From contig OZ023213.1 of the NCBI GenBank assembly GCA_963995525.1, positions 39,220,489 to 39,284,488 of the forward strand: a DNA stretch of 64,000 nucleotides. Direction: 5' to 3'. A program made the position numbers and the translations under genes. The notes under the pieces were generated by a model. The model was not told the origin of the DNA, searched no databases, and saw only the letters and a list, made by a program, of their open reading frames with translations. Shown piece by piece: positions 35,442 through 57,194 of this stretch; the stretch's first letter is position 1, and the number at the start of each line of letters is the position of its first letter. The DNA comes from Escarpia spicata (taxonomy: Eukaryota > Annelida > Polychaeta > Sabellida > Siboglinidae).

Positions 35442-38400
35442 TTAATGCTTATGCCTGCATTTCGCACGGCCCCACCAGGTGCATTTGCAACGGCAACTGC
35501 CCTGGCAACTGCAACTGCCTCGTCTGCAGTTAATGCTACAGCCATCTGCAAAAAGGAATTGCACAGAAATATCGATTCGGTTAACAAAGTAGCTGAGCTG
35601 TTCTATTAATATTAGTATAATACTTACTAACGCACTATAAATACTATCTTTGCCATTGCGTAGATTACATTTGCTATACTAACTAGCAGACATACGTCGA
35701 ACTTGATATAGTATGTGGCTGACGTTTTTACATAATGCTTGCTTTGCACAATAAGAAATCTTAATCAAATATCGTTAAATATTTAGAAGCTACACTAATG
35801 ACCGGGATGCATTTTTCGCCCCACCCCCACCCCTCCGCCCACCAACCACACCAGACTCCTTCCGACTGCAATGTACCCACTTCACCGACCTACACCGGAT
35901 ACACTTACTGGAAGCCGACGTAACGTCATAATCACGTAAACTTGAACACTTTCGAATACGTCAGACCGTTATCAAGTAGCCCCGACTACAATCAACGTAC
36001 GTAGTAGAAATTGTTCAAGTTTACTTGATTACTTGATTATCCCCCCCCCCCCCCCCCCCCCCCCCCCGGCTTCCAGCATAGCGCAGTCGAAGTCGGTCCG
36101 TGTAGTGCATTCATAGACTGTGGTCGGGTGGAGTCTGGCTTGGTCTGGTCTGGTCTACCGAAAAGAGCAACACTCATTATTAAGTCGTCTAGTTAAATTC
36201 TGGTCTACCCAATCGATAGGGTATGCTTAAATTAGCTCCTGGAACACGGAAGTATAATCCGGCGATCTGAATCCACCTATGTTATACTATAAGGTATAAT
36301 GCTTGCCCACAGTAAATAATTATAAATGTATTAAATCTTTGTACGACTTACGTCCTCCCGTAGACCTCCTATGTTCTTCTGTGGTGTAATCGTGACCAAA
36401 AACAAAAAAGAAACAACTAAGTTTAGTTTGATGTAAAGTCAAATTTATACCGTAAATAATTATAGTATGATAGCATGTATACTAGTAAGGTGTGTCACCA
36501 TACATTAATAGTAATAATAATAGCATTGATAATAATAATACTAGTACAGGTCCCAAACTCCATCGCACCAAAACCATAACCATTTGCATATAATCAAATT
36601 ATAATAACTACACATTGGCAAAGTGTCACACACAAAGCTATGTTCTTCGCGAAATATAACTTTGTTCAGCAGTTTGTCACTCACAAACACACACACACAC
36701 ACACACACACACACACACACACACACACACACACACACACACACACACACACACACACACACACACACGAGAAAAAACAGTTTACAGTAATACATTAAAC
36801 ATATTGATGGAATATGTTGTATTATCATAAATGTGTTCAACATTACAAAATTGTCTTCTCTGACGTAGGCCGCGCTTTAGGGCGCAGCGCCCTCGGGTGA
36901 GCATAATATTAACAATGATTGTAATGTCCGTTTTCCGTATATTATATTTTAATGGTTCGATGTCATAAGGTAATCTGTGTAATGCATGCACATTGTTATT
37001 ATGCAACATTTAATAGTGTACTTTTAGTGGAAAGTGTAGTTAGACTTACCTCTGGGTATCCTCCGCAGAATCGAAAGTTGGTCGTTCTCTCTCTTGTAGC
37101 GATCTTATAAGAAAATAGAAACGAAATATAATCTTTGTCAAAGTAGACTAAATATAAAACAGATGTGTGCATTTTGAGGGTGTTATTCGGCGTGAGGCTG
37201 GGATATAATGAGATTCAATTTCCGTTATTTAAAATCCATTGTCAACGTACACGACTTCGGATCAAAACACAATCTACCTAGATATATGAAATATTAACAT
37301 TTAAATTGTGTACTTAATACTCATGGCCAAAACACTTACCACTTCTACTTTACGCTTATTTCTCTAATGGCTATGTTGGGTGGATTTTTGGCAACTAGTC
37401 AGGCAATCATATATGACCACGACACGCTTCATTTGGTGTGCCAATAGACAGGTATTATTCACCTCCCTCATTTTGGTGAAAGTCAATAGGTCAACGAACA
37501 GGTGGACAGTATTACGTCAAAACATGGGCAGTCTTGGAATAAACAATAAATAGGCCAACACATTGCGTTTGAAGAATTAATATGCCGCGGTTATCAAGTG
37601 ACAAATGCAACAACCTATCGGCACGTTGGGTTATGTTCTCACATATCATGGGTTGACTCCACACTCATTTGATCCGATCCAGGCCAAATATCTATGGAAT
37701 CAGCTTGAGAGGGGCATGTGTCGAGGGGTTCAGAGACCAACTAACAGGAAGTCGCTCATACAACCATTGCGCATTTCATCGCGCCTAGTGCAAAGCATGC
37801 ACCACACAAGGTAGTGAAGTGTGAATTTGAAAAATCGACTTGCAATACATACGGCTGGCGTGCGCAGTAGTCGCTGGTCTTACTAGTGTTATAATGCCAA
37901 CTTTGTTGAGATATAACGTTATTCCTTGAATAGCAACACCATTAATATTACTATATTTGTGACACAAAGCTGTTTTATAATGTAAATCAAATAATGGTGA
38001 TTTCATTGATCTAAAGTAAAATAAAATATATGTCTTCAAAAACATACCGGATATATCGTCGCCGACTTCAGTCAGACTTTCAAAAGAATCAACATCCTAG
38101 TAAAACATAGAAGCACCACTATATCAGTTGAACACTGGCAGAATATCGCTCTAATATGTCTGTGTAATAATGTGTTGCTTTAATAAAGTAAGTGTTGACA
38201 ACAACCATATCAAATGGACTTTCAAATTATTTCAACATGACATATACAACATATAAAGACTAATGGACTAGTAAATAATTGAAGAAGGTAACTGTATTTG
38301 CTAAACACAATTATATTAGTTATTTCTCGTTGCACGTTCTCAGGCGAAGACAAGTTCATATGAAATAAGTGAGTTTGTAAAGATAGCTTATATTACCGTG

Positions 38401-38480
38401 TTTTCCAACTGAGCCGCAGTGTCATCAGCCAGTGCCGGCAACACGAAACACGCAAACAGAAGGATGACGACGGCGCGCAT
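35442..38480 (-). CDS. Secreted eight-cysteine cationic peptide precursor, gene 1 (defensin-like or toxin-like)
   Basis: Five coding exons on the minus strand with consistent phases: 38397-38480, 38048-38096, 37050-37103, 36352-36378 and 35442-35545, all GT-AG; 318 coding bases, 105 residues. Residues 1-18 form a signal peptide (MRAVVILLFACFVLPALA). Residues 19-45 are acidic. R-Y-K-R at 46-49 is a furin-type site, with further R-R pairs at 58-59 and 66-67. All eight mature cysteines are in the last exon, spaced C-x3-C-x4-C-x-C-x3-C-x-C-x-C-x7-C, with W-W in the last loop and a basic, His-rich tail. A non-coding exon ends at 38594, and a further intron lies just before the ATG. I do not know this cysteine pattern. 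An antimicrobial peptide is the leading guess; a venom-type peptide or a signalling peptide is possible. Confidence 0.75.
36041..36067. repeat. 27-base C tract
   Basis: Uninterrupted C run between the mature-peptide exon and the preceding exon of gene 1. The matching tract in gene 2 is 24 bases (54635-54658). Such runs are prone to length error. Confidence 0.95.
36687..36768. repeat. (AC)n microsatellite in intron 3 of gene 1
   Basis: About 41 AC repeats. The paralogous site in gene 2 (near 55284-55299) has only about seven, so the expansion came after duplication. Confidence 0.95.
37655..37800 (+). pseudogene. Tc1/mariner-like transposase tail in intron 2 of gene 1
   Basis: The plus strand, opposite to the host gene, reads QAKYLWNQLERGMCRGVQRP, then NRKSLIQ and RLVQSMHH. 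This follows the end of Tc1-type transposases (D-x-x-L-W-D-E-L-x-R, then the closing R-L-I-x-S-M-R-R). It is short and broken and was present before the segmental duplication, since gene 2 carries the same relic. Confidence 0.45.
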
Positions 38481-57000: not shown

Positions 57001-57194
57001 GGTAACTGTATTTGCTAAACACAATTATATTAGTTATTTATCGTTGCACGTTCGCAGGCGAAGACAATTTGATATCAAATAAGTGAGATTGTATAGACAG
57101 CTTATATTACAGTGTTTTCCAACTGACCCGCAGTGTCATCAGCCAATGCCGTCAGCGCGACACACGCAAACAGAAGGATGATGACGGCGCGCAT
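54047..57194 (-). CDS. Secreted eight-cysteine cationic peptide precursor, gene 2
   Basis: Same five-coding-exon layout and phases as gene 1: 57111-57194, 56761-56809, 55584-55637, 54948-54974 and 54047-54150, 105 residues. Non-coding exon donor at 57304/57305. Compared with gene 1, replacements are confined to the signal peptide and propeptide (positions 5, 12, 13, 15, 23 and 33). Exon 3 has one silent change. Exons 4 and 5 are identical, including all eight cysteines, W-W and the basic tail. R-Y-K-R at 46-49 is kept. All splice sites are intact, so both genes look expressed. Function is unknown: a secreted antimicrobial or toxin-like peptide is inferred from layout only. Confidence 0.75.
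54635..54658. repeat. 24-base C tract
   Basis: Counterpart of 36041-36067, in the last intron of gene 2. Confidence 0.95.
56250..56530 (+). pseudogene. Tc1/mariner-like transposase relic in intron 2 of gene 2
   Basis: The 3' part (56415-56530) repeats the QAKYLWNELERGMCRGVQRP and RLVQSMHH text of the copy at 37655. About 200 bases more are kept here upstream, with a VGVSRRSV-like patch that could be the helix-turn-helix end of the same transposase. Gene 1 therefore seems to have lost that piece. Confidence 0.4.

What the first reader, a model, noticed from the sequence alone, without database searches (positions are those of the whole stretch)
35442..57194. A duplicated gene family for an unrecognised eight-cysteine secreted peptide
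Two genes (35442-38480 and 54047-57194, minus strand) share a six-exon plan: non-coding exon, signal-peptide exon, two propeptide exons with an R-Y-K-R site, a 27-base linker exon, and a last exon holding every cysteine. The spacing C-x3-C-x4-C-x-C-x3-C-x-C-x-C-x7-C with W-W and a basic His-rich tail does not match any defensin, mytilin, myticin, macin, big-defensin or hepcidin pattern I can recall. The exons are 27-104 bases, so ordinary ORF scans miss the gene entirely. The longest frame over the last exon lies on the wrong strand.
Basis: partly seen in the sequence, partly recalled or inferred. Interest (0 to 1): 0.88.

Follow-up and report, generated by a model that had tools for sequence, protein, structure and literature searches.

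The report
Tubeworm secreted cysteine-rich peptide family
The window holds two shortened members of a large, so far nameless family of secreted, positively charged, cysteine-rich peptides, apparently from a deep-sea tubeworm, which look like defence or symbiont-control peptides but have not been tested.

Summary
Both copies encode a 105-residue precursor: signal peptide, acidic propeptide, R-Y-K-R, 27-base exon, last exon with all eight cysteines. A third identical last exon at 34577-34680 was missed. All six exons recur at four further loci; about 35 Cys-exon places exist genome-wide. Named relatives are "hypothetical proteins" of the tubeworms Lamellibrachia satsuma and Ridgeia piscesae and the mitochondrial gene order is annelid, so the host is most likely a tubeworm. 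Many relatives carry two Cys domains (11 of 15 loci read); the window genes are truncated forms with a second-domain relic in the 3'UTR. No significant match in Pfam, NCBIfam or PDB. Best reading: furin-processed cationic (+9 to +25) host-defence-type effectors, possibly controlling the symbiont. No expression or activity data were available, and dN is close to dS among C10 paralogues, so the window copies may be decaying.

The parts
38594..38630 (-). gene 1 exon 1, non-coding; 3' end at 38594 firm, 5' end approximate (TATA-like TTAAAA at 38654-38659)
   Evidence: donor AG|GTAAG in 7 of 7 aligned loci; TTAAAA in 6 of 7, TTAAGA in L026; 5' end inferred
38397..38483 (-). gene 1 exon 2: start codon 38480, signal peptide (residues 1-18 by eye) and start of propeptide; acceptor could also leave the exon start at 38485
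38048..38096 (-). gene 1 exon 3: acidic propeptide
37050..37103 (-). gene 1 exon 4: R-Y-K-R processing site and RRIPR
   Evidence: RxKR also in P0002, P0009, P0010 and by pattern in 5 of 14 further loci
36352..36378 (-). gene 1 exon 5: 27-nt phase-neutral linker exon
   Evidence: a splice site of it is lost at L021 and at L023
35442..35545 (-). gene 1 exon 6: eight-cysteine domain and stop
35312..35441 (-). gene 1 3'UTR stretch with the relic of the second Cys domain (stretch tested, 130 nt)
34577..34680 (-). second, identical copy of the last exon downstream of gene 1
   Evidence: inside tandem repeat 34309-35174 = 35174-36039, 100%
57305..57341 (-). gene 2 exon 1, non-coding (5' end approximate)
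57111..57197 (-). gene 2 exon 2: start codon 57194, signal peptide
56761..56809 (-). gene 2 exon 3: acidic propeptide
55584..55637 (-). gene 2 exon 4: R-Y-K-R site
54948..54974 (-). gene 2 exon 5: 27-nt exon
54047..54150 (-). gene 2 exon 6: eight-cysteine domain and stop, identical to gene 1
53917..54046 (-). gene 2 3'UTR stretch with the second-domain relic (stretch tested)

Best explanation
These are two members (plus an extra last exon) of a large multigene family of secreted host peptides in an annelid, most likely a vestimentiferan tubeworm. The precursor enters the secretory pathway through an N-terminal signal peptide; an acidic propeptide (net -7) balances the cationic rest until a furin-type protease cuts at R-x-K-R (in several two-domain relatives also at R-x-R-R just before the first Cys domain). 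The freed peptide folds into a small disulfide-stabilised, possibly beta-rich unit (one unit here, two in the probable ancestral form) and acts outside the cell or in a symbiont- or phagosome-containing compartment by binding negatively charged microbial surfaces, as a host-defence type effector. Shown here: gene structure, family, conservation of most cysteines and of the processing site, charge. Inferred: signal cleavage, furin processing, disulfides, antimicrobial action.
For: Intact ORFs and splice sites in two window copies; all six exons at four C10 loci and exons 1-3 at a diverged C12 locus; named homologues with signal sequence, acidic propeptide, RxKR and Cys domains; six core cysteines invariant in the 11 domains; acidic pro (-7) and cationic rest (+9), +9 to +25 in nine forms; gene clusters with dN about equal to dS, as often in immune effector families (recall); a second basic site R(T/I)RR in 5 of 14 scanned relatives and RTRR in P0002 and P0009 (P0010 lacks it).
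Against: No transcript, proteomic, induction or activity data were available. dN is about dS among five C10 members; 18 of 33 exon matches contain a stop in the matched stretch, in at least two of them only the normal terminal one; the window genes have lost a domain, so they may be non-functional. In wider sets the cysteines are not all invariant: of 22 first domains 16 keep the first and 19 the seventh. Cationic Cys-rich secreted peptides also occur as signalling molecules and venom peptides (recall). The fold model is of low confidence (mean pLDDT 67.1; 46.2 for the two-domain protein).
Confidence: 0.6

Rival explanations
1. The window copies are decaying pseudogenes or barely functional derivatives of two-domain genes: truncated, recently duplicated and no longer under selection, although the family as a whole is functional.
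For: Loss of the second domain, whose relic lies after the stop in 7 of 7 one-domain loci tested; dN about dS; neighbours L021 and L023 have each lost an exon-5 splice site; 18 of 33 exon matches hold a stop, some of them the normal one.
Against: Both ORFs intact, all splice sites kept; the last exon differs at 0 of 104 positions between the copies while introns differ by 3.8-7.7% and the 3'UTR by 6 of 205, which is only weak evidence; no cysteine lost in five C10 members although 12 of 34 columns vary (chance 0.018; columns counted by eye, one of them a stop in L021).
Confidence: 0.2
2. A secreted signalling peptide or cytokine (for example an EGF-like or knottin-like ligand) rather than a direct antimicrobial effector.
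For: The six cysteines invariant have spacing C-x3-C-x4/5-C-xn-C-x-C-x6/8-C, within the loose spacing of EGF-like and inhibitor-knot modules (recalled patterns).
Against: No Pfam model at E<=10 for any of nine sequences; strong positive charge and fast copy-number change are unusual for receptor ligands (recall).
Confidence: 0.12
3. A metal- or sulfide-handling secreted peptide (metallothionein-like), suited to a vent or seep animal.
For: C-x-C and C-x3-C motifs and a His-rich tail in the window copies; the habitat of the named relatives (recall).
Against: It has a signal sequence and a processing site, unlike metallothioneins (recall); the His tail is not conserved in the two-domain relatives; the Cys number is even in 8 of 9 mature forms counted, as expected for disulfides.
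Confidence: 0.06

Closest known systems
Hypothetical proteins LSAT2_031238 and LSAT2_029770 (Lamellibrachia satsuma) and NP493_245g03013 (Ridgeia piscesae)
   Same: Same prepro region, RxKR site and Cys domain(s); homologues (E 9.0e-30 for LSAT2_031238; 1.9e-31 and 6.3e-25 for the other two)
   Different: Two Cys domains instead of one (the second incomplete in LSAT2_029770); Ridgeia has about ten cysteines per domain; none has an assigned function
Annelid antimicrobial peptides: macins, BRICHOS-type (arenicin, alvinellacin), perinerin (review PMC6780910, abstract and passages read)
   Same: Cationic, disulfide-containing host-defence peptides; BRICHOS type also has a proregion
   Different: Macins are over 60 residues with a CS-alpha-beta fold; arenicins have one or two disulfides and a BRICHOS proregion; perinerin has four cysteines; no Pfam hit here
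Bacteriocyte-specific (BCR) and nodule-specific (NCR) cysteine-rich peptides (PMC6594739, abstract and opening text read)
   Same: Families of secreted cysteine-rich peptides (BCR: 6 or 8 cysteines) in hosts of intracellular bacteria
   Different: No sequence relation was tested; expression in the symbiotic organ is not known here; the present family has an N-terminal acidic propeptide with a furin-type site and a tandem-domain form
Big defensins and mytilin-type mollusc peptides (PMC3182236, PMC7168163: search listing with start of abstract only)
   Same: Secreted cysteine-rich host-defence peptides
   Different: Other cysteine number or spacing (big defensin six, from the abstract; mytilin spacing recalled); no homology found; other phylum

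Membership tests
Vestimentiferan prepro-Cys family (new, unnamed) | Shared signal/propeptide, RxKR, C-x3-C-x4/5-C core in last exon | tested here: met
Vestimentiferan prepro-Cys family (new, unnamed) | Two tandem Cys domains in the last exon (probable ancestral form) | tested here: not met
   One domain in the window genes; second-domain relic in the 3'UTR. Counted as a truncated member, not as outside the family
Macins | Match to the macin profile; CS-alpha-beta fold with helix | tested here: not met
   No Pfam family at E<=10; the low-confidence model has strands only
BRICHOS-type AMPs | BRICHOS domain in the proregion | tested here: not met
   0 families
Defensins, big defensins, mytilins, hepcidins | Match to a family profile and its cysteine spacing | tested here: not met
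   Pfam 0 families; PDB only chance matches to other molecules at E 0.78 and 0.28; spacing differs from patterns that are recalled
EGF-like or inhibitor cystine knot peptides | Profile match; disulfide connectivity | tested here: inconclusive
   No Pfam hit and no Foldseek match of a low-confidence model, but the spacing of six cysteines is loosely compatible (recall); connectivity unknown
Metallothioneins | Cytosolic, no signal peptide | tested here: not met
   N-terminal hydrophobic signal-like sequence in all 7 sequences; no signal predictor was run
BCR/NCR-type symbiont-control peptides (functional class) | Expression confined to symbiont-bearing cells | not testable with these tools
   No expression data held
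BCR/NCR-type symbiont-control peptides (functional class) | Antimicrobial or differentiating effect on the symbiont | not testable with these tools
   Needs synthetic peptide

The most novel reading that the evidence does not exclude
The family is the tubeworm counterpart of plant NCR and aphid BCR peptides: a lineage-restricted, expanding arsenal of furin-released cysteine-rich peptides that the gutless host delivers to its intracellular sulfur-oxidising symbiont to stop division and drive its differentiation into large polyploid cells, with domain loss (as in the window genes) tuning the repertoire.
Probability: 0.2. Interest if true: 0.88.

Novelty: new variant of a known kind. Interest (0 to 1): 0.62.

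Why it matters
How tubeworms keep and shape their symbiont is open; two papers on Riftia propose host antimicrobial peptides, and in the passages that I saw they name only histones and histone-derived peptides (PMC6918071; PMC7787665). In five tubeworm genome papers the word 'antimicrobial' occurs 0 or 1 times (PMC8476170 once; PMC8789280, PMC10192322, PMC6862839 and PMC9921365 not at all), and the passages found there do not describe such a family. A family of about 35 Cys-exon places whose exons are 27-104 bases in the window genes is easy for annotation to miss, and it gives concrete candidates for expression and peptide tests.

Tried and rejected
Single-sequence protein search found nothing; only the family alignments did. 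Text search for six fragments of the peptide found no paper. An EGF-like reading was considered from the cysteine spacing and not upheld by Pfam. NCBIfam gave only a class C beta-lactamase model at E 0.21, far below its cut-off; PDB gave only a shark-antibody chain at E 0.78 and a nuclear-localisation peptide at E 0.28. Co-loss of Cys columns was examined for disulfide pairs (left out beforehand: g2 as identical to g1, L041 and L051 as near-copies of L038, the stop-broken second domains of L038, L041, L051 and the incomplete one of P0009). In 14 second domains the fourth and the terminal Cys are both absent in 8 and both present in 4, and in the other 2 (P0002, P0010) the terminal Cys is displaced by one residue; tool p 0.015, but the sequences are not independent. 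First domains gave nothing below p 0.06. Protein-level comparison of the 3'UTR with domain 2 was weak (against L026: g1 63 of 1000 shuffles as high, g2 3 of 1000, L024 clear only in another frame; worse against the others, and one antisense frame of g2 scored higher than the sense frame against P0002); the DNA-level test was clear. Structure prediction gave low confidence and Foldseek against PDB gave 0 matches. Rfam: 0 matches in the window. The pattern search was unspecific (1980 forward and 1726 reverse matches; control 1012 and 1157) and was not used. The metal-binding N-terminus idea (X-X-H) from exon 5 was dropped because exon 5 and these His residues are not conserved. The script ended exon 4 of L026 three bases late (141 aa, no GT there); the 140-aa model with the GT donor was used.
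Full report
What was checked. Gene 1: exons 38397-38483, 38048-38096, 37050-37103, 36352-36378, 35442-35545; gene 2: 57111-57197, 56761-56809, 55584-55637, 54948-54974, 54047-54150. The introns between coding exons have GT/AG ends and the frame is kept. Each gene codes for 105 residues. A non-coding exon 1 ends at a donor at 38594/57305 that is kept in 7 of 7 aligned loci; a TTAAAA box upstream is kept in 6 of 7 (TTAAGA in L026). 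An AATAAA lies 205 nt after the stop of each of the three last exons. The longest listed ORF over the gene 1 last exon is on the plus strand, as claimed.

The last exon exists three times, 100% identical: 34577-34680 lies in an 866-bp exact tandem repeat (34309-35174 = 35174-36039) that ends beside a poly-G tract. Matching blocks from about 32.0-44.9 kb recur at 51.0-62.2 kb, mostly at 90-95% identity (82-85% at the left end). Between genes 1 and 2 introns 2-5 differ by 3.8-7.7%, exon 2 by 9.0%, exons 3 and 4 by about 2%, the 3'UTR by 2.9%, and exons 5 and 6 by 0 of 27 and 0 of 104.

The family. A search of the own genome with the mature peptide gave 11 matches at E<=10, three of them in the window. 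All six exons, with flanks, align at L020, L021, L022 and L023 on C10 (81-99% per exon), and exons 1-3 align at L026 on C12 at 73-76%. L021 has lost the exon-5 acceptor and ends two codons early; L023 has lost the exon-5 donor. Searches with Lamellibrachia P0002 (46 matches at E<=10, of which I count 19 as signal-peptide exons) and with the C12 two-domain exon L029 (33 matches at E<=0.01 among 50 scored candidates) show a large family: about 35 Cys-exon places after merging (24 on C12, 8 on C10, 2 on C8, 1 on C1; the weak matches at C10:31265422, E 0.79, and C11:25661717, E 0.19, were left out). In one search, 15 of 33 matches have no stop inside and 18 have at least one; in at least two of these (L034, L040) it is the normal terminal stop. 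So many members are truncated or dead. The tool calls its counts lower bounds, and some partial places may belong to one gene.

Named relatives. One sequence alone found nothing. The alignment A2 found 7 proteins at E<=1, five of them named Lamellibrachia satsuma hypothetical proteins and two unnamed; A3 found 6 at E<=10, adding LSAT2_029770 and Ridgeia piscesae NP493_245g03013. P0002, P0009 and P0010 share the signal sequence, the acidic propeptide, R-x-K-R and the Cys region; P0003-P0008 share only the N-terminal part (P0003-P0005 with RxKR) and look like incomplete gene models. These records are predictions by others; I saw no transcript. The protein collection is mainly of prokaryote and metagenome origin, so absence from other animals is not shown. 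The mitochondrial contig C1097 reads nad3, S, nad2, cox1, N, cox2, D, atp8, Y, G, cox3 (protein genes named by eye from the translations, tRNAs by ARAGORN), the usual annelid order (recall). The species was not identified; Paraescarpia echinospica is of similar size (1.09 Gb, 12,710 contigs before scaffolding, PMC8476170 passages), against 1.06 Gb in 1097 contigs here.

Probable ancestral form and truncation. Eleven of the 15 mature-exon loci read run through two Cys domains without a stop (L029, L030, L031, L033, L034, L037, L040, L043, L045, L047, L052); L032 is broken in domain 2 and L038, L041 and L051 have a TGA there. P0002 and P0010 also have two domains, P0009 a partial second one. The 130 nt after the stop of the one-domain genes align at the DNA level with domain 2 of L026 in 7 of 7 loci, each above all of its 1000 dinucleotide shuffles (scores 17.0-25.5, z 4.9-9.7; the loci are related, so these are not seven independent tests). 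In the gene 1 region the only one of 59 sliding windows that scores 12 or more is this stretch; over 1930 other windows of both strands the best control is 17.0, which all loci but L022 (17.0) exceed. The two-domain query L029 aligns through the stops of the window genes to residue 73 of 77 at 46-47%. The protein-level test alone was weak. So the window genes are most simply shortened derivatives. The processing-site exon was found by pattern in 5 of 14 scanned relatives as RxKRED(N/H)P(L/S)LxR(T/I)RR (the pattern is strict, so the nine misses are not absences): there a second basic site sits immediately before the Cys exon, where the mature peptide may start; in the window copies the same place reads RRIPR plus the 27-nt exon.

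Cysteines and fold. In the 11 domains six cysteines are invariant. In the larger set this is looser: in 22 first domains the eight cysteines are kept in 16, 21, 21, 20, 21, 20, 19 and 22; in 14 second domains six are kept in 13 or 14 and the fourth in 6. The model of the window domain has four strands and no helix but mean pLDDT of only 67.1 and pTM 0.27 with four sequences; the two-domain model is worse (46.2); Foldseek against PDB gave no match. I draw no fold conclusion beyond 'possibly beta-rich'.

Selection. Among g1, g2, L020, L021 and L022 (10 pairs) mean dN is 0.070 and mean dS 0.079 over codons 1-101: no strong purifying selection is visible. Twelve of 34 columns of the mature exon vary among these five (counted by eye) and none is one of the eight cysteines (chance 0.018). 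This fits fast-evolving effectors but also partial decay.

Function. The design (signal, acidic pro, furin-type site, cationic cysteine-rich product, clusters, turnover) is that of host-defence effectors. Net charge of the part after the processing sites is +9 to +25 in nine forms (for the two-domain forms of this genome only the last exon was counted). The bolder reading, symbiont control, rests on the lineage: large Riftia symbionts have more genome copies, trophosome tissue is cited as having antimicrobial effects, and host antimicrobial peptides have been proposed to regulate the symbiont cell cycle, with histones and histone-derived peptides as candidates in the passages seen (PMC7787665, PMC6918071). 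Aphid BCR peptides (6 or 8 Cys) are an animal precedent (PMC6594739, abstract and opening text). Nothing here shows where these genes are expressed, and no test here separates symbiont control from ordinary defence.

In print? Ten paper searches in the held open library and term searches inside seven tubeworm papers, a study of Ridgeia immunity, one of Riftia symbionts and the annelid AMP review showed no description of this family. Other listed papers were not opened except PMC6594739; subscription papers and supplements were not searched. Absence from print is therefore not proven.

Noticed in passing
34309-36039: 866-bp exact (100%) tandem duplication that doubles the last exon and its intron and 3' flank, with a boundary beside a poly-G run; recent event, gene conversion or assembly artefact.
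   Followed up: partly
31993-44938 and 50981-62226: Segmental duplication in matching blocks (mostly 90-95% identical, 82-85% at the left end) that carries the two genes.
   Followed up: partly
41567-43104, 16611-17162, 25575-26093, 22783-23964, 26908-27954: Several reverse-transcriptase- or endonuclease-like ORFs of non-LTR type (by eye from the translations); 10386-12957 (minus) looks Pao/BEL-like (recall).
   Followed up: no
46677-47690 and 61216-61850: Long simple repeats giving spurious long ORFs; a short-unit array lies at about 58127-58444.
   Followed up: no
L021 exon 5 and L023 exon 5: The 27-nt exon 5 has lost a splice site at two loci; because it is phase-neutral, skipping would keep the frame, so the linker length may vary between members.
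   Followed up: partly
P0003-P0008: Lamellibrachia and unnamed proteins with the same signal and start of the propeptide but other C-termini: incomplete gene models, or a shared prepro region with other mature peptides.
   Followed up: no
C12:42554369, 43077678, 43046183 (L038, L041, L051): Three paralogues share the same TGA in the middle of domain 2, a second route to shortened peptides.
   Followed up: no
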